Part shown: piece after piece, positions 5,226 through 50,018 of the stretch
Layout of the letters: the number at the start of each line of letters is the position of its first letter
Numbering within the stretch: position 1 is the first letter of the stretch
Assembly: GCA_021292165.1 (NCBI GenBank)
Contig: CM037879.1
Span: 17,569,525-17,633,524 of the forward strand
DNA length: 64,000 bases
Direction of reading: 5' to 3'
Source: Shinisaurus crocodilurus
Lineage: Eukaryota > Chordata > Lepidosauria > Squamata > Shinisauridae
Made by a program: the position numbers and the translations under genes
The notes under the pieces: generated by a model
Databases searched by the model: none
Told to the model about the DNA's origin: nothing
Seen by the model: only the letters and a program-made list of their open reading frames with translations

Positions 5226-5230
5226 CCCCC

Positions 5231-6018
5231 TGTGAAGATGGGACTTGTAGTAGCTGAGACTTTAGAAGAAACCCTGTTAGATGTTCTTCCTCCCCCCCCC
5301 CATTGCTGTTTAGCTAACGGATTTTTACTGTAGTCTTTGGAATGTACTGGGAGGCTGTTTGGGAGCACCTGGGAGATAAGGGTGAGCTGCAGAGCTGGAA
5401 AGCAAGGTCAGGCGTTAATTGGGATGAAGTCATGAGAAAGTGTTTACAGCTGAGAAAGGGCGGGGGCCCCTCCTTCGACAGTTAGGGAGACAGGATTGGT
5501 GAACGCTGGGCGGGAAACTGGACCCTGGTGACAATAAAGGAGCTAGGGGAAAAGGCTTCAGTGTTCTTCCATTGGGGCGTGGATGCTGGGAAGTTCCATC
5601 TGGGCAGGTATGCCACTCTGACAGGGTAGCTAAGAAAAGCTAGGCCTGGTTTGACTTACTTTGTTCCTGCAGACTCTTGGGGGTTTGTTTTTATGTTCTT
5701 TTAGAGTCCCTTTTTATTCCCATTCCCTTTTCCTCACAACAACTACCTCACCCCCTTTTCCCCTTTACCTTCTTTTAGCCCTTTTTTATAAGGGATTATT
5801 TTACTTATATTGGACACTTGGAGACCCTACACTGACTAATTTGTTATTCTTACTTTTAATAAAGTCTCCAACTTAATCCTGGTGTGTGTTCCTTTTTGAA
5901 AGGTTGGGGCTGCTACACCAGTTTGGTGTATGGGACCTTGGGAGGTGTGTGCCAGTCCAGGGAACTTTGGGACTGTGGCCTGCCCTGCAGGGTTGGCGTA
6001 AGATCAGCCTCCTTCACA
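5231..6018 (+). repeat. 5' LTR of the Gypsy element
   Basis: 788 bp, TGTGAAG...TTCACA. It contains a ten-C run near 5292, a TATA-like ttttataagg near 5784 and a polyadenylation signal aataaa at 5858-5863, with a second aataaa near 5532. Every position compared matches 9559-10346 at a constant offset of 4328. A 71-codon open frame inside (5661-5876) recurs in the 3' LTR and is not considered a gene. Confidence 0.93.
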
Positions 6019-6036
6019 TGGTGGCTTAGCGGTCGG
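6019..6036 (+). promoter_or_regulatory. Putative primer-binding site
   Basis: Directly after the LTR comes TGGTGGCTTAGCGGTCGG. It starts with TGG, as expected for pairing with the CCA end of a tRNA. I could not assign the tRNA. The same stretch also resembles a pol III A box (tggcttagcgg), which may be coincidence. Confidence 0.5.
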
Positions 6037-6124
6037 ATTTTGCAGCCCACCTGAGGAACATTTGTTTGTCAAACCAGGCAAAGGTTTGTTATTTTCCAGA
6101 TAGGGAAAAGTTGTTAGGGCAGAA

Positions 6125-8371
6125 ATGGAGTCTGCTCTGTTGGATCAGGACCGACCCCTGCTGGGAGCAGAGGCGGTAGACGATCTGCCGGTGTTGGACC
6201 GGGAGGACATTTTACCAGTTGAGGCTCCTCGAGTCGCCCCTCCTATTGAAGTGACTGTCGATTGGGAAGGCGCAGAGGGCGAAGAGAGAAGGGTGTCGAT
6301 CCCATCTCGCTTGGCAGACTGGATGGTGGAACCTAGGGGCCGAGAGGAGAGCCCCAGGTCTCGGAGGTGGAGCACGGGCAGTGGCAGTGACCAGGGAGAG
6401 GAGGAGGGAGCGACAGCGGTTCTCCTCCGGCGGACTCGGAGGATCCCGAATCTGTCTCGTCCCAGATCTACTTCCAAGGAGAGAGAGAGACGAAACGACC
6501 TGTCTCGCCCCAGGCCTACATCCAGAGAAAGAGAATTACAAAAGCAAGTTGACCTTCTGCAGAACCAGTTGGCAAAACACACTGGAACTGTTCGTCCTGA
6601 GAAGCCAAACTTCAAGGACCTGCCGCGTTTCCATGAGGGGCAGGATCCGCTGGAATATTTGGGCTTGTTTGAAATTGCCTGCGAAGATGAGCGTATTCCC
6701 CGTGGCAGCTGGATGTCGGCCCTTCGATCACGAGCCTCAGGCTGTCTGGCTCAACTGTTGTACAGCGTCCCGCGAGAGGATACGCATAATTATGGACAGT
6801 TTAAAGAACTGGTCAGACAAACTTTTTGCCTTTCGGCCGAGAGGTGTCGGCAACGTTTCAGAGAGATTAAAGCTGAGCCCGGTGAGGGTTTTGTCTCCAT
6901 GGCAACGAGGCTGCGAAGGTCCCTGGATTTATGGCTGGAGACGGCTCAAGCTGTCTCCTTTCGAGATTTGCGAGAGCTGGTGGCCTTAGAACAGTTTTAT
7001 GCCGTTCTCCCCGAAGGAAGGGCAGCGCTGGTGAGTGGCCAGCGGCCCACCAATCTCCGGCAAGCGGCGCTGCTTGCGGACCAGATGGGAGTTTATCGGA
7101 AGGGGGGAAGCAGCAATCGAACCACCCCAGCCAAGCCGGCGGGAGGCGGCGGGAAGAGTGAAACATCCAATCCAACTGGAGGAGGAATCGGGCCCAAAGC
7201 CACTTCAACCCCGACGACGACCGGATGCTTCTACTGTAAATTGGAAGGGCATCTGCGTCGGGACTGCCCCAAATTAAAGGCCAAGTTGCAAAAAGAAACA
7301 GCTGCTAAAGTGGGTGCTGTGAGACCGGTGCCTCTCGATGACTCCCCCGGAGAAGCCTCAGATTGGAGTGAGGTCAGCGAGGGAGAGGGAGAAGATCCAG
7401 CCCCACGTATCCCGGGAAATGGAGTAGCGGCCCGGCATTCACCGTCATGGAAGAGAAAGGAGCCGGCGATGGCTTTGGTTCAACCAGGACAAGTCAAGTG
7501 GAGCCAGCTACAATTCTGTGAGTCTCTTAAAATTAATGGGCAATGGGGACAAGGTTGGAGAGACAGTGGGGCTGCCCTTTCCGCTATTGACCGGAGTCTG
7601 GTGAAGCCAGGACAGATGCTAGAGGGACAATTTTTTACCATCACTCCTTATAACTCTCCCCCCATTGCCATGCCTTTGGCTAGAATACCGTTAGAATACA
7701 AAAATTGGAAAGGAGAATTGGACTTGTTAGTACATGAAACTGAATTTACTACGTTTCTTATTGGAAATGATCTGGCTTTCTTGGCCAGTCAAGCCCCTGT
7801 TTTAGCGGTGACTCGGAGTCAGACAATTAAGAAGAAGCAGGCCTCCCCAAACCCCGCATTCCCTGCCCCGATAGTAGAATCTTGCCTCCCGGCTGAGGGA
7901 GAGGCGACAGCTACGGACAGACGGGCAGGGGAGGGGGATGGAGACCCAGCAGAGCCAGAGTCAGCTAAACAGCAGAGAAAAGATTTATTGCCGGCAGGCG
8001 AAGAGGATGTGGCGGAGAGAGAAAAAATCCTTTCAGGGAATCTTCGCTCCACTGCCTTTGTGGAGGCTCAAAACCAAGATCCGTCCTTGCAGGAGTGCAG
8101 GGAGGCGGCTGAAAACCAGGTGGCTACTGTGACGCCTCAACATCCTGTTCGGTTTTTTTGGGAAGCGGGAGTCTTATACCGAGAGTTTGCACCGAAAGGA
8201 GTTGGACAAAGGTGGAAGGTTTATCGCCAGTTAGTGGTCCCACAAGGGTTCCGAGAACCGGTCTTACAGTTGGCTCATGCTACTGCGTGGGGGGGGGGCA
8301 TTTGGGGAGGAAACGGACTTTGCACAAGGTGTCTAATGAATTTTATTGGCCTTCAGTGGCGGAAGCCGTGA
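6125..8371 (+). CDS. gag: Gag-protease polyprotein of Gypsy element, running into the integrase linker
   Basis: 748 codons from an ATG 106 bp after the LTR. In order: an acidic and Arg/Ser-rich N-terminus (1-150); a capsid (about 155-325) whose second half resembles the SCAN fold (RQRFREIK, then WLETAQ, LVALEQFYAVLP, LRQAALLADQM at about 237-322); a CCHC zinc knuckle C368-X2-C371-X4-H376-X4-C381; an acidic linker; and an aspartic protease with the active-site DSGA at 480-483. Past the protease come a VTRSQ-type linker and the start of the integrase zinc domain (first His at 8275-8277). The frame is lost at a ten-G run (8289-8298), and the last 25 or so residues are out-of-frame. Gag assembles particles and binds RNA; protease cleaves the polyprotein. 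Gag and protease share one frame with no stop or slippage site between them. Confidence 0.9.
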   Translation: MESALLDQDRPLLGAEAVDDLPVLDREDILPVEAPRVAPPIEVTVDWEGAEGEERRVSIPSRLADWMVEPRGREESPRSRRWSTGSGSDQGEEEGATAVLLRRTRRIPNLSRPRSTSKERERRNDLSRPRPTSRERELQKQVDLLQNQLAKHTGTVRPEKPNFKDLPRFHEGQDPLEYLGLFEIACEDERIPRGSWMSALRSRASGCLAQLLYSVPREDTHNYGQFKELVRQTFCLSAERCRQRFREIKAEPGEGFVSMATRLRRSLDLWLETAQAVSFRDLRELVALEQFYAVLPEGRAALVSGQRPTNLRQAALLADQMGVYRKGGSSNRTTPAKPAGGGGKSETSNPTGGGIGPKATSTPTTTGCFYCKLEGHLRRDCPKLKAKLQKETAAKVGAVRPVPLDDSPGEASDWSEVSEGEGEDPAPRIPGNGVAARHSPSWKRKEPAMALVQPGQVKWSQLQFCESLKINGQWGQGWRDSGAALSAIDRSLVKPGQMLEGQFFTITPYNSPPIAMPLARIPLEYKNWKGELDLLVHETEFTTFLIGNDLAFLASQAPVLAVTRSQTIKKKQASPNPAFPAPIVESCLPAEGEATATDRRAGEGDGDPAEPESAKQQRKDLLPAGEEDVAEREKILSGNLRSTAFVEAQNQDPSLQECREAAENQVATVTPQHPVRFFWEAGVLYREFAPKGVGQRWKVYRQLVVPQGFREPVLQLAHATAWGGGIWGGNGLCTRCLMNFIGLQWRKP

Positions 8372-9504
8372 AAAACTATTGCCGCTCTTGTGACACCTGC
8401 CAAAGAGTGGGGTTCAATAAAGATCACCCTAAAGCCCCTTTACAGCCCCTCCCCCGAATAGAGACTCCCTTTGAAAAAATTGCTGTAGATATATTGGGGC
8501 CTTTCCAGACGCCCACCAAGACAGGCAAAAAATTCATTCTTACGGTTGTGGATTTCGCAACTCGCTATGCAGAAGCTGCACCGTTAACATCAATCACTGC
8601 CTCTACTTTGGCTAAGACTTTATTAGCTATTTGTGCCCGGCTGGGTATGCCCAAAGTAGTACTTTCAGACCGGGGACCTGGATTTGTGTCGCAACTAATG
8701 CAAAAGATGTGGGAACTGGGAGGGGTAGAGCAATGTTTCTCTGTACCCTATCATCATCAGACAAATGGGCTAGTAGAGAGGTTCAATCAGACCCTGGGAA
8801 AGATGATTCGAGCCTATGTGACAAACCACCCTAAAGACTGGGATCAAGGGCTTCCTATGCTCCTATTTGCGTATCGGGATGCCCCTCAAGAAAGTTTGGG
8901 GTTTTCTCCGAATGAGCTAATGTTTGGCCGGGAGCTCAGAGGCCCTCTGACTATGCTTAGAGAAGAGTGGGAGCAAAAGGTGGCTAGTTCCTCTCAGAAT
9001 GTTATAAGTTTTATGCAAATGCTACAGAATACTCTGAGAGAGGTACAACAAGTGGCGCAGGAGCATTTAGCCCACGCTCAAGGCACGCAGAAGGCGTGGT
9101 ATGATCAAACTGCCCGAGTCCGAGTGTTTCAGCCCGGAGACCAGGTTCTTGTTCTCAAACCGGTTAAACCCGATAAGTTAACCCTTAAGTGGGAAGGGCC
9201 TTTGACTGTGAAAGAGCGGTTGGGGGAAGTCAACTATTTGTTGCAGTATGCAGAGACCTCGCGATTGCCGAAGGTTTTTCATGTCAATATGCTCAAGCGG
9301 TATGTGGACCGGAAAGATTTTGTGTTTCCCCTTCAGCCTAAGCCCGAAGAGCTGGCTAGGCCTTTAGATCTGTTAGGAGAATGTCAACAGAAAAGAGGGA
9401 TAGAAGAAATGCCCTGGCCTTTAACTTTGCCCCCTACAGCAACGCCAAGGATTGCAGCAATCCCCCGAGAAGCTTGTCTCGGATTCACACTGAAGAATAA
9501 TTAG
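8158..9504 (+). CDS. pol: Integrase of Gypsy element (separate frame)
   Basis: The frame is open from 8158, but homology starts only at the poly-G run (about 8293). It shows the remaining zinc-domain residues (His at 8299-8301 and the CRSCDTC cysteines near 8380), then a catalytic core with D111 (8488), D171 (8668) and E207 (8776), spaced D-X59-D-X35-E as in retroviral-type integrases. A C-terminal GPY/F-like region follows (WEGPLTVKERLG, HVNMLKRYV). There is no chromodomain. The role is strand transfer of element cDNA into chromosomes. The core looks intact, but the zinc domain is split between two frames, so this copy probably does not make a working enzyme. The ORF ends 54 bp before the 3' LTR, where RT would be expected in a Gmr1-like element. 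Confidence 0.88.
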   Translation: MGSGSLIPRVCTERSWTKVEGLSPVSGPTRVPRTGLTVGSCYCVGGGHLGRKRTLHKVSNEFYWPSVAEAVKNYCRSCDTCQRVGFNKDHPKAPLQPLPRIETPFEKIAVDILGPFQTPTKTGKKFILTVVDFATRYAEAAPLTSITASTLAKTLLAICARLGMPKVVLSDRGPGFVSQLMQKMWELGGVEQCFSVPYHHQTNGLVERFNQTLGKMIRAYVTNHPKDWDQGLPMLLFAYRDAPQESLGFSPNELMFGRELRGPLTMLREEWEQKVASSSQNVISFMQMLQNTLREVQQVAQEHLAHAQGTQKAWYDQTARVRVFQPGDQVLVLKPVKPDKLTLKWEGPLTVKERLGEVNYLLQYAETSRLPKVFHVNMLKRYVDRKDFVFPLQPKPEELARPLDLLGECQQKRGIEEMPWPLTLPPTATPRIAAIPREACLGFTLKNN

Positions 9505-9550
9505 AAGATGAGGTCTGGCAGGAATTCCCTCCCAGTCTCATCTCCTTAAA
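9470..9550 (+). pseudogene. Residual C-terminal tail of pol, after the RT/RNase H deletion
   Basis: In a frame different from the integrase ORF, about 9466-9550 can be read with one stop (taa) followed by EDEVWQEFPPSLISL and then the polypurine tract. A short acidic and proline-containing tail just before the PPT is what the end of a pol ORF might look like. I infer it is the remnant downstream of the deletion, whose junction would lie between roughly 9330 and 9470. The assignment is tentative. Confidence 0.35.
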
Positions 9551-9558
9551 AGGGGGGA
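9548..9558 (+). promoter_or_regulatory. Polypurine tract
   Basis: aaaagggggga lies immediately upstream of the 3' LTR, as expected for the plus-strand DNA primer of an LTR retrotransposon. Confidence 0.85.
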
Positions 9559-10346
9559 TGTGAAGATGGGACTTGTAGTAGCTGAGACTTTAGAAGAAAC
9601 CCTGTTAGATGTTCTTCCTCCCCCCCCCCATTGCTGTTTAGCTAACGGATTTTTACTGTAGTCTTTGGAATGTACTGGGAGGCTGTTTGGGAGCACCTGG
9701 GAGATAAGGGTGAGCTGCAGAGCTGGAAAGCAAGGTCAGGCGTTAATTGGGATGAAGTCATGAGAAAGTGTTTACAGCTGAGAAAGGGCGGGGGCCCCTC
9801 CTTCGACAGTTAGGGAGACAGGATTGGTGAACGCTGGGCGGGAAACTGGACCCTGGTGACAATAAAGGAGCTAGGGGAAAAGGCTTCAGTGTTCTTCCAT
9901 TGGGGCGTGGATGCTGGGAAGTTCCATCTGGGCAGGTATGCCACTCTGACAGGGTAGCTAAGAAAAGCTAGGCCTGGTTTGACTTACTTTGTTCCTGCAG
10001 ACTCTTGGGGGTTTGTTTTTATGTTCTTTTAGAGTCCCTTTTTATTCCCATTCCCTTTTCCTCACAACAACTACCTCACCCCCTTTTCCCCTTTACCTTC
10101 TTTTAGCCCTTTTTTATAAGGGATTATTTTACTTATATTGGACACTTGGAGACCCTACACTGACTAATTTGTTATTCTTACTTTTAATAAAGTCTCCAAC
10201 TTAATCCTGGTGTGTGTTCCTTTTTGAAAGGTTGGGGCTGCTACACCAGTTTGGTGTATGGGACCTTGGGAGGTGTGTGCCAGTCCAGGGAACTTTGGGA
10301 CTGTGGCCTGCCCTGCAGGGTTGGCGTAAGATCAGCCTCCTTCACA
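9559..10346 (+). repeat. 3' LTR of the Gypsy element
   Basis: 788 bp, same ends and same length as 5231-6018, and identical by eye including the ten-C run. The polyadenylation signal is at 10186-10191. Followed by ccccc, the second copy of the target duplication. Confidence 0.93.
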
Positions 10347-10351
10347 CCCCC

Positions 10352-34665: not shown

Positions 34666-35499
34666 CTAGCGATGAGTCCGTAAGTGACTGTGGAGGCCAA
34701 TTCTAGATCCACACAGCTTCCCACAGTGAGGACACAGGTTACCAGATAGAAGATGGTCCTGTAAAGGATTCATCTGACGTGCTTTTCGCTTAGCACGTTT
34801 CTCCCTTTCACCTTGCACTCGGGCTTCTTCAAAGTCCATGGAACCTTTGTGAAAGGCCAACCTCCATTTAGATCGTTCATGGGCCAGAGCTTCCCAGTTT
34901 TCGATGTTTATATTGCATTTTTTTAGATTAGCCTTATGAACATCTTTAAACCTCTTATATTGACCACCGATATTCCGCTTTCCATCCTTGAGTTGGGAGT
35001 AAAGTAACTGCTTTGGGAGACGGCAGTCAGGCATTCGAACAACATGACCGGTCCACTGAAGTTGGCGTTGAAGGATCATTTTTTCAATGCTAGTAGTCTT
35101 TGCTTCTTCCAGTACACTGACATTTGTTCGCCTATCTTCCCAAGTAATTTGCAGGATTTTCCGGAGGCAACGTTGATGAAACCTTTCAAGGAGGTGGAAG
35201 TGACGTTTATAGATAGTCCATGTTTCGCAGGCATACAATAAAGTTGGTAATACAATGGCTTCATAAACCAGTGTTTTGGTCTTCTTACAAATATCCCGAT
35301 CCTCGAACACTCTATGTTTCATTCGAGAAAATGCGGCACTTGCGGAGCTCAGACGATGCTGGATTTCACTGTCGATGTTAGCTGTAACAGAAAGATAGCT
35401 GCCAAGATAGAGAAAATGATCGACGTTTTCCAGTATTGTCCCGCCAAGCTGGATAGATGGCATCACCAAAGGATTGGCTTGCACTTGCTGATGAAGCAC
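34666..35499 (-). pseudogene. LINE ORF, C-terminal part with zinc finger
   Basis: 277 open codons. They start just after the reverse transcriptase palm, with FLYLGSYLSVTANIDSEIQ, then a LLYACETWTIYKRH motif and LQWTGHVVRMPDCRLPKQL, followed by a basic region (REKRAKRKARQ) and a C-terminal finger C-X2-C-X12-H-X3-H (CPHCGKLC...HSHLRTH). This is the longest surviving open segment of the element. The finger probably binds nucleic acid during target-primed reverse transcription. Upstream coding continues in other frames, so this is a fragment rather than a gene with its own start. Confidence 0.8.
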
Positions 35500-35558
35500 T
35501 TTGGTTTTTTTGATGTTAAGTGAGAGACCAAGTTTTTCGTATGCTTCTGCAAAAGCAT

Positions 35559-36044
35559 TTAGGATAGTTTGGAGATCATCCTCTGAATGTGCGGAGACAC
35601 ATTATCATCAGCATACTGAAGTTCCACGACGGAGGTTGTAATTACCTTACTTTTTGCTTTCAGCCTGCTGAGATTAAAAAGCTTTCCATCTGTTCGATAT
35701 ATAATTCCCACACCGGTGGGAAGTTCCCCTCGACAAGATGTAAAACATGGCGATGAAAATGGCAAATAATGTTGGGCGATAAACACATCCCTGTTTAACA
35801 CCTGATCCCACTTTAAATGGAGCACCATGAGAGCCGTGTTGTCCAAAACCGTTGCCGTCATGTTGTCATGGAGAAGTCGCAAGATATTCACAAATTTATT
35901 GGGGCATCCAATTTTCATAAGGATAGTCCAGAGAGCTGTGCGGTCTACAGTATCAAAGGCCTTAGCCAAATCGATAAATGCCATATAAAGGGGTTGATTT
36001 TGCTCCCGGCATTTTTCTTGGAGCTGACGTGCAGTAAAAATCAT
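35559..36044 (-). pseudogene. LINE reverse transcriptase palm
   Basis: Contains YMAFIDLAKAFDTVDR (RT motif A, catalytic Asp) and VVELQYADD (motif C, the YxDD box). Between them the sequence resembles the expected fingers-palm linker but is frameshifted (LPFSSPCFTSCRG should be an alternative frame). Stops separate it from the C-terminal ORF at 35499. Not functional. Confidence 0.8.
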
Positions 36045-37079
36045 GTCTACTGTCCCTCTAGAGGGGCGGAAACCATATTGGGTTTCAGGGAGGATCTCTT
36101 CTGAAATAGATAGAAGACGGTTTGCAAGAATCCTAGCAAATATTTTACCTGCGGTTGCTAAGAGAGAAATGCCCCGATAGTTTCCACAGTCTGTTCTATC
36201 ACCCTTCTTAAAGAGGGTGATAATTATGGCATCCTGAAGTCTTCTGGGATCTCTTCTCTTATCCAGATTTTTTCGATGAGTTTATGAAGATGTTGTACAA
36301 GTTCGGGACCCCCTTCTTTAAAGATTTCAGCGGAATCCCATCTGGTCCACTAGCTTTGTTGTTCTTCATTTGATTAATGGCTTTTTTACTTCATCCAAAG
36401 TGGGGAGTATTGCAAGTTCCTCTTTAATTTGTTTTTGCGGGATTTGCGAAAAAAATCTCATTATCCACCTTAGATTTACGATTTAAAGGTCATAATAATG
36501 CTCTTTCCACGCAGTGCAATAGACTCTTTATCTTTTTAAGAGTTTGGTGCATCTTTTGAATTGTTAAAGGGTTTGTACCATAGGTTTTTGGTCCATACAT
36601 GGCCCTTGTGGCCTTAAAAAGCCCCGTGCATCATGAGATTCGTGCAAGTTGTTGAATTTCTTCAGCTTTCTTTTTCCACCAAGCGTTCTTAAGTTCTCTT
36701 GTTCTTCTTTGGACCTCAGCCTTTGCGCTAGCGTAGGGTTTTTTCTTGGCAGCGCAGAGTAATATCATTTTGCCATATTTGGAAGGCTTTCCTTTTTTGG
36801 TTCAATATATATTTAATCTCATTGTCATTTTCATCAAACCCATCCTGATGTTTCTTAGTTTCATATCCAATAGTTTGTTCACAAGCTGCAGTAATGGAGG
36901 TTTCAGCTTAGACCAATGGTCCTCAATGTTGTCAGGAGGTTCCGGTAGGTAGATGTTCCTTAAGAGAGATTGGAAGACGAGTTTGCTTAATAGAATCTTG
37001 AAGGACTTGATGTTCATTTTACGCCTTGGTTTCCTTCCTTGAAGCCTACGTGGGGGAGCAATGTTGATAACCATTTTGG

Positions 37080-46749: not shown

Positions 46750-47712
46750 TTAGCCCACCCCATATTCCTGCCTGAATAACAAAGTTTTTAATGAGCGGCG
46801 GAAGCTCAGCAGAGAGGGGGCATGACGGAGGTCACTTGGGAGAGAGTTCCATAGTATGGGGGCCGCCACAGAGAAGGCCCTCTTCCTCGTCCCAACCAGT
46901 CTAGCTGCTCTGGCTGAAGGGACAAGGAGAAGGCCGTCTGTGGCAGATCTTGTTGAGCGGCCCACTTGGTGTTGCTGGAGACGCTCCTTGAGATTGACTG
47001 GACCGGAGCCGTATAGGGTTTTAAAGGTCAAAACCAACACCTTGAATTCGGCTCGGCAAGCAACTGGTAGCCAGTGCAAATCCTTCAGCACTGGCGTGAT
47101 GTGATCCCGCCGGCGGCTGCCTTTCACCAGGCGAGCCGCTGCGTTCTGTACCAGCTGTAGCTTCCGAACCGTCTTCAAGGGTAACCCCACGTAGAGCACA
47201 TTACAGTAGTCTAGGCGAGAGGAGACCAAGGCATGAACCACTGATGGGAGCAGATGATTAGGAAGGTAGGGGCGCAGCTGCCGTATCAGATGGAGTTGAT
47301 ACAGCGCCGCCCGGCTCACAGCTGCCACCTGAGCCTCCATGGACAGCTGGGAGTCTAGAATGACCCCCAAGCTGCGGACCTGGTCCTTCAGGGGTAGATG
47401 TACCCCATCCAGCACCAGGTCAACATCCCCTAACCTCCCCTTGTCCCCCACCAGCAGTACCTCGGTCTTGTCGGGGTTCAGCTTCAGCATATTCCTTCCC
47501 ATCCAGCCACCCACTGACTCCAGGCACTTGGACAGGGTCTCAATGGCCAACCTCGGTGAGGATTTGAAAGAGAGGTAGAGCTGCGTGTCATCCACATTGG
47601 GGTGCAGTGTACTGATGACACTGCACCCCAAACCTCCTGATGATAGCTCCCAGTGGCTTGAGGTAGATGTTGAATAACATCGGGGAGAGGATGGAACCCT
47701 GCGGCACTCCAC
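46750..47712 (-). pseudogene. L2 ORF, C-terminal part
   Basis: About 275 codons after the YADD box belong to the L2 reverse transcriptase and C-terminal region (DDTQLYLSF, WMGRNMLKLNPDKTEVLLVG, SRLDYCNVLYVGLPL, LQLVQNAAARLV, LHWLPVACRAEFKVL, WNSLPSDLRHAPS). It is intact to its stop, seven residues after FRQEYGVG-type sequence. The first 45 or so residues are out of the L2 frame, because a 13-nt insertion (about 47597-47631) shifts the reading frame inside the YADD box. Confidence 0.88.
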
Positions 47713-48388
47713 AAGTGAGCAGCCGAGGGTCTGAAGCCTCCTCCCTGAGAACTACCCTCTGGTCCCTTCCAGAGAGGAAGGACTGGAACCACTGCAATAC
47801 AGTGCCTCCTATGCCCAACTCCTCCAGGCTGTCCAGGAGGATACCGTGGTCAACGGTATCAAAAGCCGCTGAGAGATCGAGGAGGACTAGAAAGGAGCAT
47901 TCGCCCCTATCCAAAGCCCTCCTCATATCATCCACCAAGGCGACCAAGGCCGTCTCTGTCCCATGTCCAGGCCTGAAGCCCGACTGGCACGGATCTAAAT
48001 AATCGGCTTCATCCAAGTGTGCCTTCAACTGAGCACCCACCACCCGCTTGATCACCTTGCCCAGAAATGGCAAATTGGAGACTGGGCGGAAGTTGTTCAG
48101 ATCCTGGGGATCCAAGGAGGGCTTCTTTAGAAGTGGTCTTATTACTGCCTCCTTGAGGGCTGATGGCATCACTCCCTCCTCGAGGGAGGCATTTACCACC
48201 GCCTTGATCCCCTCACCCAGTCTCTCCCTACAGCTCATAATGAGCCAGGACGGGCAAGGGTCAAGCAAGCAGGTGGTCGGCCTCACAGATGAAAGCACCT
48301 TGTCCACTTCATCAGAAGGAAGAAGCTGGAACCGATCCCACAAAACCGGTCTGCCATTGGCCTCCTCCCACTCACTCCCTGTGTCCAC
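47588..48388 (-). pseudogene. L2 ORF, reverse transcriptase fingers and palm
   Basis: Shows VIRPLLKKPSLDPQDLNNFRP (fingers), YLDPCQSGFRPGHGTETAL, LVLLDLSAAFDTVDHGILL (motif A with catalytic Asp) and GVPQGSILSPMLFNIYLKPL (motif B). It then reads CHQY and loses the ADD at the insertion. So the catalytic motif C is split from the rest. RT would copy element RNA at a nicked target. Confidence 0.9.
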
Positions 48389-48437
48389 GACGTACGATAT
48401 CCCACTCCTAATCCGATCAATTTTATCTGCAAAGTGT

Positions 48438-49127
48438 TTAGCGTTCTTTCGCTAAAGCCTCACAGGAGGCTTTAGACTGTTCCATTGGGTCCAGAGCGGC
48501 TGGACCGACCAGACTCCGGACCACTTGGAACAGCCTCCTGGGGCAGCACTCTGCAGACGCAATGGAGGTAGCATAGAAATTCTTTTTTGCTGCCTTCACC
48601 ACCACTCGGTAGGCTGAAGATGCAGCTCCAACCCGTGTTCGATCGTCTTCGGAGCGGGAATTTCGCCATCGACGCTCTAGCCTTCTCACCTCTTGTTTCA
48701 GAGCTCGCAGCGAAGGAGTGAACCATGGTGCCGCGTGAGCTCTGTTTAGGCGAAGAGGGCGCTTCGGGGCAACTCGGTCTAATGCCCTGGTGATTGCAGC
48801 ATTCCAGTCGTCCACCAGGGTCTCGACCGAGCTACCGTTTGTGTGCTCCAGTTCCCCAAGCGCGTTCAGGAATCCATCCGGATCCATAAGACGCCTGAGG
48901 CGGACCATCCTAATAGGTCCCTCACCCCTGCAGAGGGGTTGTGGCACCGAGAGATCCAACCCCACCAGATAGTGATCTGACCATGACAAGGGGATGGTGG
49001 ATATACCCCCGATCTCCAGATCATTTCCTCCCTCTCCGGAAACAAAAACCAAGTCCAGTGCATGACCGGCTACATGGGTAGGTCCAGTTAATACAGGGTG
49101 CAGCTCCCAGGAAGCCATGGTCTCCAT
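48438..49127 (-). pseudogene. L2 ORF, endonuclease end and linker
   Basis: Contains VAGHALDLVFVSG and SWSDHYLVGLDLSVP, the end of the apurinic-type endonuclease (SDH motif), then a linker (WNAAITRALDRVAPKRPLR, WFTPSLRALKQEVRRLERRW, AYRVVVKAAKKNFYAT). Frameshifts near 49130 and 48440 join it to neighbouring parts. Confidence 0.85.
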
Positions 49128-49214
49128 GAAGTCCCAAGGTGCCCCGTGAGGGCAGCCCCCGAATGCACATTGAAGTCCCCCAGCACCAATAGCCTGGTGG
49201 ACAACACACGCACA

Positions 49215-49613
49215 TCAGAGACCACCTCCAGCACCTCGGCCAGGGAGTCTGTCGTTCCTTCGGGGTGGACGGTACATGAGCAGAATCCCCAGACTGCCCT
49301 TGGGACCCAACCTCCAGTACATGCACTCAATAAACTTGGTCTCTCGGAGAGGGAGTCTGGTAAGGACCAAGGACTCCCGGTAGATAACAACCACTCCCCC
49401 TCCCCGTCCCCCAACCCTTGGCTGCTGGGCATACGAGAAACCAGCCGGACACAAGGCCGTCAAAGTTGGAGCAGCGGCCTCATCCAGCCAGGTTTCTGTA
49501 ATACATGCCATATCCGCACCTTCATCCATGATCAAGTCATGGATGAGAGATGATTTTTGGGTAACGGACCTGGCATTGCACAACAGCAAACGCAAGGTGG
49601 GGGGAGGAGCCAC
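49215..49613 (-). pseudogene. L2 ORF, endonuclease N-terminal part
   Basis: Starts [21 protein letters not shown], then ITETWLD (catalytic Glu of the LINE endonuclease), GGRGGGVVVIYRESL and [19 protein letters not shown] frameshift near 49245 moves the following GDFNVHSG segment to another frame. Confidence 0.85.
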
Positions 49614-50018
49614 ACATCCCCCAGTTATCCCTTGGCTCTGGGCAGGCCCGGGACAAGGGATAGGTATTAATCATCGATCCCCTGTCCCCCTTAATCGGCG
49701 TGGCCTGCCCCTAGCGTTCTGCCAGCGCCTGCCCAGTGGTACTGTTTGCCCCCCAGAACTCCCCCCACTATCTCCCTGGGAGAGACACATGCCCCCCCTC
49801 ACTTCCGCCAATCAGGCGGGAGACCCACCCCTAAAATCAACCCCTAAAAAATCCCAGCCCTTCAAAAAGGAAGGGCCTCTTAAAAACTCCCAGCCCCACT
49901 CCCAGACCACTGTTAATGTAATAGTTGGAGAGTAGAGGTGAACATAAAGTAATATATATAACAAGACATTCATGCAGTTAATTTGAAAGCAGGACAAAAA
50001 GGGACAATCTGCTCTTTT

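What the first reader, a model, noticed from the sequence alone, without database searches (positions are those of the whole stretch)
5226..10351. Freshly inserted Gypsy element that carries protease and integrase but no reverse transcriptase
Both LTRs are 788 bp and read as identical, and a 5-bp duplication of the target is intact, so the insertion is recent. Between the LTRs there is a Gag-protease ORF and an integrase ORF but no RT or RNase H. In Gmr1-like Gypsy elements integrase follows protease directly and RT comes last (established for that group), so the deletion is at the downstream end. Such an element keeps its own integrase while borrowing RT, which would be an unusual kind of non-autonomous LTR element. 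If more copies share the same deletion, it is a family propagated in trans and not a single accident.
Basis: partly seen in the sequence, partly recalled or inferred. Interest (0 to 1): 0.78.

Follow-up and report, generated by a model that had tools for sequence, protein, structure and literature searches.

The report
Transposon family that dropped reverse transcriptase
A young family of virus-like jumping genes in this animal genome has lost the enzyme that copies its RNA into DNA, yet keeps its own capsid, protease and integrase genes; closely related full-length elements in the same genome still carry the missing enzyme and could supply it.

Summary
The window element (5231-10346) has 788/788 identical LTRs, a CCCCC duplication, SCAN-type Gag, protease and DDE integrase, but no RT or RNase H. 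In its own 2.19-Gb genome all 40 scored matches, the window included, carry the same RT-less 3' end; 23 of 40 further loci do too: 63 loci, one an assembly duplicate. Of 39 non-duplicate loci read in full, 36 have a 5-bp duplication, 12 of these with no LTR substitution. The other 17 of 40 loci run on towards RT. In the one read further, RT and RNase H are present and the LTR is 95.8% identical. So one deletion of about 1.3 kb removed RT-RNase H and the deleted form multiplied. Integrase stayed under purifying selection: shared variants 5 N:31 S; those arisen inside the RT-less group 2 N:13 S. Correction: in the window copy the Gag-PR-IN frame is broken at a G run; 9 of 39 interiors have it open. 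Supply of RT in trans is inferred, not shown.

The parts
5226..5230 (.). target-site duplication, 5' copy (CCCCC)
5231..6018 (+). 5' LTR, 788 bp, TGTGAAG...CTTCACA; TATAA at 5787, AATAAA at 5533 and 5858
6019..6041 (+). putative primer binding site; begins TGGTGGC like the one copy each read of RT-bearing families A and C; primer tRNA not identified
6125..8371 (+). Gag-protease part of the polyprotein frame; the last codons, after the G run, are out of the integrase frame in this copy
6839..7087 (+). SCAN-like capsid domain (ORF1 residues 239-321)
7223..7273 (+). CCHC zinc knuckle (residues 367-383; slightly under the Pfam cut-off)
7559..7774 (+). retropepsin-like protease: DSG at 7562, FLIGNDL at 7754 (no Pfam match)
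8113..9504 (+). integrase frame (stop to stop); H2C2 finger, rve core (D 8488, D 8668, E 8776), C-terminal SH3-like domain
8289..8298 (+). 10-G run where the frame changes between Gag-PR and integrase in this copy
9304..9461 (+). linker that in RT-bearing siblings leads into RT; 91-94% identical to 17 such copies
9462..9470 (+). deletion junction; about 1.3 kb (RT and nearly all of RNase H) of the sibling read is absent here
9471..9558 (+). end of the RNase H coding region plus 3' untranslated region, 98.9% identical over 88 bp to an RT-bearing sibling; polypurine tract 9548-9558
9559..10346 (+). 3' LTR, identical to the 5' LTR
10347..10351 (.). target-site duplication, 3' copy

Best explanation
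The element belongs to a non-autonomous family of a Gmr1-like Ty3/Gypsy retrotransposon. SHOWN: one deletion removed RT and almost all of RNase H, between the linker after integrase and the last codons of RNase H; LTRs, polypurine tract and (in part of the copies) a single open Gag-PR-IN frame were kept; the deleted form inserted repeatedly and recently; RT-bearing siblings with near-identical integrase, one with a shown matching LTR, are in the same genome; shared integrase variants carry the mark of purifying selection in the RT-less group. INFERRED: RT-less RNA enters particles made of its own and its siblings' Gag; the siblings' polyprotein supplies RT-RNase H; the RT-less polyprotein supplies Gag, protease and an integrase that works on its own cDNA or must at least stay compatible with mixed particles. 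The Gmr1 order, with RT last, lets one deletion remove RT-RNase H without touching Gag-PR-IN.
For: Same RT-less 3' end at 40 of 40 scored loci, window included, and at 23 of 40 further loci. 36 of 39 non-duplicate loci read in full have a 5-bp TSD, 12 of these 36 without LTR substitution. One unbroken Gag-PR-IN frame of 1128-1156 codons in 9 of 39 interiors; frames of 1204-1216 codons holding the integrase in 20 of the 23 other RT-less loci, 20 that I had picked for such frames. Siblings running on towards RT at 17 of 40 loci; in one, LTR 95.8% and 3' end 98.9% identical, RVT_1 E 4e-36, integrase in a 1559-codon frame. Selection: integrase variants shared by 2 or more of 34 copies 5 N:31 S against an opportunity of 2.65:1 (P 3e-13); wrong frames 33:3 and 32:4; pairwise pN/pS 0.08 for integrase, 0.26-0.40 elsewhere. 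In 600 bp of integrase compared with 5 siblings: variants arisen inside the RT-less group and shared 2 N:13 S, fixed differences 0 N:4 S, singletons 20 N:8 S. RT-bearing and RT-less rows separate: SH-aLRT/bootstrap 96.8/97 (integrase piece), 91.3/94 (linker).
Against: No RNA, protein or mobilisation data. 30 of 39 interiors, the window's among them, lack one unbroken frame. Only 5 siblings were sampled for integrase, over 600 bp; recombination in Gag and PR was not tested. 5 of 20 shared integrase variants are not clearly derived inside the RT-less group, and the linker has only 1 fully fixed difference. Singletons are near neutral in the 600-bp piece (20:8) but not over the whole integrase core (32 N:27 S, P 0.002), so part of the signal in singletons is unexplained. 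The sibling's LTR (95.8% to the window) is no more distant than some RT-less copies' LTRs (93.5-99.2%), so LTR recombination or a young split is possible. Binomial P values treat sites as independent. Constraint outside integrase is weaker and the post-integrase tail shows none that is significant (9 N:6 S).
Confidence: 0.85

Rival explanations
1. A passive deletion derivative: after losing RT it is copied entirely in trans, and its Gag-PR-IN frame is a neutral remnant that has not yet decayed.
For: Copies are young (median 2 LTR substitutions in 36 copies); 30 of 39 interiors lack one unbroken frame; singletons in the 600-bp integrase piece look neutral (20 N:8 S).
Against: Variants inherited through replication are strongly synonymous in integrase (2 N:13 S derived inside the group; 5 N:31 S overall) and only in the right frame.
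Confidence: 0.08
2. Integrase looks conserved because RT-less RNAs keep recombining with RT-bearing siblings, so selection acts in the siblings.
For: Siblings share integrase and, in the one read, LTR at high identity; template switching in mixed particles is expected (established for retroviruses, recalled).
Against: RT-bearing (5) and RT-less (34) integrase pieces separate, 96.8/97; at 15 of 20 shared variants the 5 siblings all carry the commoner allele, so the rarer one arose inside the RT-less group.
Confidence: 0.2
3. Integrase is conserved not because the RT-less element needs it in cis but because a faulty integrase subunit would poison mixed particles (selection against dominant-negative forms).
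For: Integrase works as a multimer (established, recalled); it is the most constrained part (pN/pS 0.08).
Against: Nothing here separates this from cis use.
Confidence: 0.3
4. Assembly artefact: a collapsed or mis-assembled single element.
For: The window copy's frame break at a G homopolymer could be a base-call error.
Against: The same junction at many loci on many contigs, most with their own TSD.
Confidence: 0.01

Closest known systems
Gmr1 clade of Ty3/Gypsy elements
   Same: Integrase upstream of RT in the sibling read; SCAN-like capsid domain; LTRs with 5-bp TSD. The order is described in PMC8220671 and PMC2774666, SCAN in over half of frog Gmr elements in PMC4131045, SCAN derived from Gmr1-like Gag in PMC4592553 and PMC3424704 (passages seen in each).
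   Different: This family lacks RT and RNase H.
BARE2, the Gag-less parasite of BARE1 in barley (PMC3735527, passages seen)
   Same: A conserved deletion and packaging into particles that need another element's protein.
   Different: BARE2 cannot make Gag. Here RT-RNase H is lost and Gag, PR and IN are kept.
TRIM, LARD, TR-GAG and ETn/MusD-type non-autonomous LTR elements (what they keep is recalled; TRIM, LARD and TR-GAG were used as or seen among terms and abstracts)
   Same: Non-autonomous LTR elements depending on helpers.
   Different: As recalled they keep no coding capacity or Gag alone; none is recalled as keeping a selected integrase without RT.
Pogona vitticeps LOC144587192 (P0121, 888 aa)
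   Same: CCHC-like motif, protease-like region and integrase in one gene model without an RT match; integrase 42% identical over 342 aa.
   Different: No SCAN match in the model; a predicted gene whose genomic surroundings I did not see; may be a truncated model, a host gene or a separate RT-less element.

Membership tests
Gmr1-like Ty3/Gypsy | integrase lies upstream of RT | tested here: met
   In same-family siblings the integrase linker runs on towards RT (17 of 40 loci, 330 bases each; RVT_1 confirmed in the one read further); in homologues 32 of the 32 with detectable RT or RNase H. Not observable in the RT-less element itself.
Gmr1-like Ty3/Gypsy | SCAN-like capsid domain in Gag | tested here: met
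   PF02023 E 2.3e-12, 46.9 bits against a cut-off of 27
Gmr1-like Ty3/Gypsy | integrase groups with IN-before-RT relatives | tested here: met
   Tree of 36 rows; the 7 RT-less rows used form one group (98/95) beside RT-bearing families of the same genome. No named Gmr1 reference was included.
non-autonomous LTR retrotransposon family | lacks an essential enzyme domain | tested here: met
non-autonomous LTR retrotransposon family | many independent insertions of the same deleted form | tested here: met
   63 loci, one a duplicate; TSDs at 36 of 39 non-duplicate loci read in full
non-autonomous LTR retrotransposon family | full-length partner with matching LTR and 3' end | tested here: met
   LTR 95.8%, 3' end 98.9% in the one partner read
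non-autonomous LTR retrotransposon family | matching primer binding site in the same-family partner | not tested
   Partner 5' end not fetched; one copy each of families A and C shares the first 7 bases
non-autonomous LTR retrotransposon family | mobilisation in trans demonstrated | not testable with these tools
   no expression or mobility data
TRIM / LARD | no coding capacity (recalled) | tested here: not met
   unbroken frames of 1128-1216 codons in part of the copies
BARE2-like | Gag cannot be made | tested here: not met
   Gag frame open in the window copy and in part of the others

The most novel reading that the evidence does not exclude
A split retrotransposon system: because Gmr1 elements put RT last, one lineage has become a stable RT-less partner that makes its own Gag, protease and integrase under selection and shares RT-RNase H with RT-bearing siblings. 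It could also support siblings whose Gag-PR-IN is broken, making the pair partly interdependent and not plain host and parasite.
Probability: 0.25. Interest if true: 0.8.

Novelty: new variant of a known kind. Interest (0 to 1): 0.66.

Why it matters
Non-autonomous LTR elements are usually thought of as having dispensed with enzymes of their own, and RT-less copies are taken as dead in at least one survey (PMC4715297, passage seen, calls elements lacking rt genes unable to replicate). Here is a large, young RT-less family whose integrase is strongly conserved, with RT-bearing siblings beside it. It makes testable which retroelement proteins act in cis and which can be shared, and shows how gene order decides which gene can be lost.

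Tried and rejected
Considered and rejected: RT hidden elsewhere in the element; single accident; standard Gypsy order with a central deletion; a programmed frameshift at the G run (9 of 39 interiors have one frame). The protein search with ORF1, whose words come from its first 500 residues, found nothing at E<=0.001; residues 440-748 found only P0121. Viral contigs: nothing. No tRNA gene in the window by ARAGORN; primer tRNA not identified. The RT search with a frog RT ranked other families first (20 loci looked at). In the one copy each read, A and C share the LTR 3' end and PBS start and A and B the polypurine tract and LTR start, but the LTR body gave no significant match and Gag only a 46-residue piece in A; they were set aside as closest helpers once the same-family partner was found. 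Paper listings (titles, counts and abstract starts, at most 20 rows each, 162 papers matching) showed no RT-less, integrase-keeping family; most subscription papers are not held.
Full report
Check of the observation. The window element runs from 5231 to 10346. Its LTRs are identical over 788 of 788 bases, with no further identity on either side, and CCCCC flanks both ends. ORF1 (6125-8371) has a SCAN domain, a CCHC knuckle just under its Pfam cut-off and a protease assigned from DSG and LIGND motifs and from alignment to relatives; the integrase frame has the H2C2 finger, rve core and C-terminal domain with an intact D,D-35-E. RT and RNase H were not found. One correction: in this copy the Gag-PR and integrase frames differ, the change falling at a 10-G run (8289-8298) inside the integrase zinc-finger motif.

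Gene order. 530 proteins matched the integrase; 120 were listed. In the 32 of those 120 where RT or RNase H could be detected it lies after integrase; in 88 neither was detected, which may owe to the length bounds of the search. Passages of PMC8220671 and PMC2774666 describe this Copia-like order for Gmr1, and passages of PMC4131045, PMC4592553 and PMC3424704 link SCAN to Gmr1-like Gag.

Family. The window lies in a 2.19-Gb genome of 1490 contigs. All 40 scored matches (of 400 candidates; the window is one of the 40) to window 9000-9558 cover the whole query at 97-100% identity. I read the 39 others over their full length. One, L024, duplicates L023 (same TSD and LTR figures, unplaced contigs). 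Of the 38 remaining, 35 have a perfect 5-bp TSD; the three without (L017, L018, L043) are tandem or rearranged. With the window that makes 36 copies: 12 have no LTR base substitution, median 2, maximum 14; gap columns (0-7 per pair) were not counted. At assumed (recalled) rates of 1-2e-9 per site per year, zero substitutions means less than about 1-2 million years and the median about 0.6-1.3 million.

Frames. Of 39 interiors (window and 38 copies), 9 have one unbroken Gag-PR-IN frame of 1128-1156 codons; the other 30, the window among them, do not. So the break in the window is a feature of this copy or of its base calls.

RT-bearing siblings. A search with the integrase protein gave 123 matches, 120 of 7376 candidates scored, so counts are lower bounds. 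36 were copies already read. For 40 of the other 87 I fetched 330 bases after the integrase: the first 20 chosen for odd open-frame lengths, the next 20 for frames of 1204-1216 codons, so proportions are not estimates. 17 of 40 run on with the linker that leads into RT; 23 of 40 are RT-less with the same junction, one of them (L088) with a further small deletion. 47 matches were not examined, 21 of them short or partial. In one sibling (C2:54468698; integrase in a 1559-codon open frame) I read pieces: RVT_1 at E 4e-36 with RNase H following in the same frame, an RNase H end, a 3' end 98.9% identical over 88 bp and an LTR 95.8% identical over 789 columns. RT itself was not read in the other 16. 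Homology of the RT-less form with the siblings stops at window 9461 and with this one resumes at 9471, leaving out about 1.3 kb (reckoned from the coordinates).

Other RT-bearing families. A frog RT query gave 150 scored matches of 6832 candidates, E 2e-85 or better in the rows listed. Twenty of these loci fall into at least four groups (A-D), 41-68% identical to this integrase in their longest aligned pieces. In one copy each, A has an LTR pair 99.3% and C 99.9% identical over the pieces found; none was found in the pieces of B. The LTR bodies gave no significant match to this LTR, but A shares the LTR ends, the first 7 PBS bases and the polypurine tract. In a tree of integrase ends the seven RT-less rows used form one group, 98/95.

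Selection. 34 interiors were used (window plus 33; L010, L017, L018, L032, L043 left out as rearranged or internally deleted, L024 as duplicate). Variants shared by two or more copies: integrase core 5 N:31 S (opportunity 2.65:1, P 3e-13); Gag N-terminus 19:22, CA-CCHC 15:19, PR 7:9, PR-IN linker 10:12 (P 0.0007 to 0.013); post-integrase tail 9:6 (not significant). Singletons: integrase core 32:27 (P 0.002), Gag N-terminus 39:17, CA-CCHC 39:26 (P 0.049), PR 19:13, PR-IN linker 20:17 (P 0.015), tail 11:9; so singletons are nearer to neutral but not neutral throughout. Read in the two wrong frames the integrase gives 33:3 and 32:4; without CpG contexts 0:25. Pairwise pN/pS: integrase 0.08 (bootstrap 0.04-0.11), other parts 0.26-0.40. 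All 34 keep D, D and E. Using 600 bp of integrase (8704-9303) from five siblings, RT-bearing and RT-less pieces separate (SH-aLRT/bootstrap 96.8/97; linker 91.3/94 with 17 against 56 rows, L088 left out). Of 20 shared variants there, 15 have all five siblings at the commoner state: 2 N:13 S (P 2e-6). The other 5 are all S. Fixed differences: 0 N:4 S. Singletons with the siblings at the commoner state: 20 N:8 S, as expected for changes after insertion; 3 further singletons 2 N:1 S. Among the five siblings themselves variants are 12 N:17 S.

Mechanism. Shown: one deletion, multiplication, recency, RT-bearing siblings, constrained integrase. Inferred: RT-RNase H comes in trans from siblings in mixed particles. 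Whether integrase is kept for use on its own cDNA or because faulty subunits would poison mixed particles cannot be separated here; both need the RT-less polyprotein to be made and built in.

Novelty. Non-autonomous LTR families are known, as is BARE2, which has lost Gag (PMC3735527, passages seen). Six listings showed no family that keeps a selected integrase while lacking RT; this is not a full survey, as the lists are capped and most subscription journals are not held. I rate it a new variant of a known kind.

Noticed in passing
P0121 (Pogona vitticeps LOC144587192): 888-aa gene model with CCHC-like motif, protease-like region and integrase (42% identical) but no RT match; perhaps another RT-less element, a host gene or a truncated model.
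   Followed up: partly
G000:C2:180654198-180663417 (L017, L018): Two RT-less units lie in a row about 3.5 kb apart, as if sharing an LTR: a tandem arrangement without a simple TSD.
   Followed up: no
G000:C3:1292382-1327844: Pieces of this integrase at five places a few kb apart on one strand, suggesting a tandem array or cluster.
   Followed up: no
G000 contigs C1489 and C1490: Matches occur as like pairs on these two contigs, perhaps assembly duplicates.
   Followed up: no
window 34666-36281 and 46750-49670, minus strand: Two LINE-like stretches split over several frames, each with an RVT_1 match, the second also with an endonuclease domain.
   Followed up: partly
L068-L073: One copy each of other Gmr1-like families A and C has LTR pieces 99.3% and 99.9% identical, so several such families may be recently active in this genome.
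   Followed up: partly
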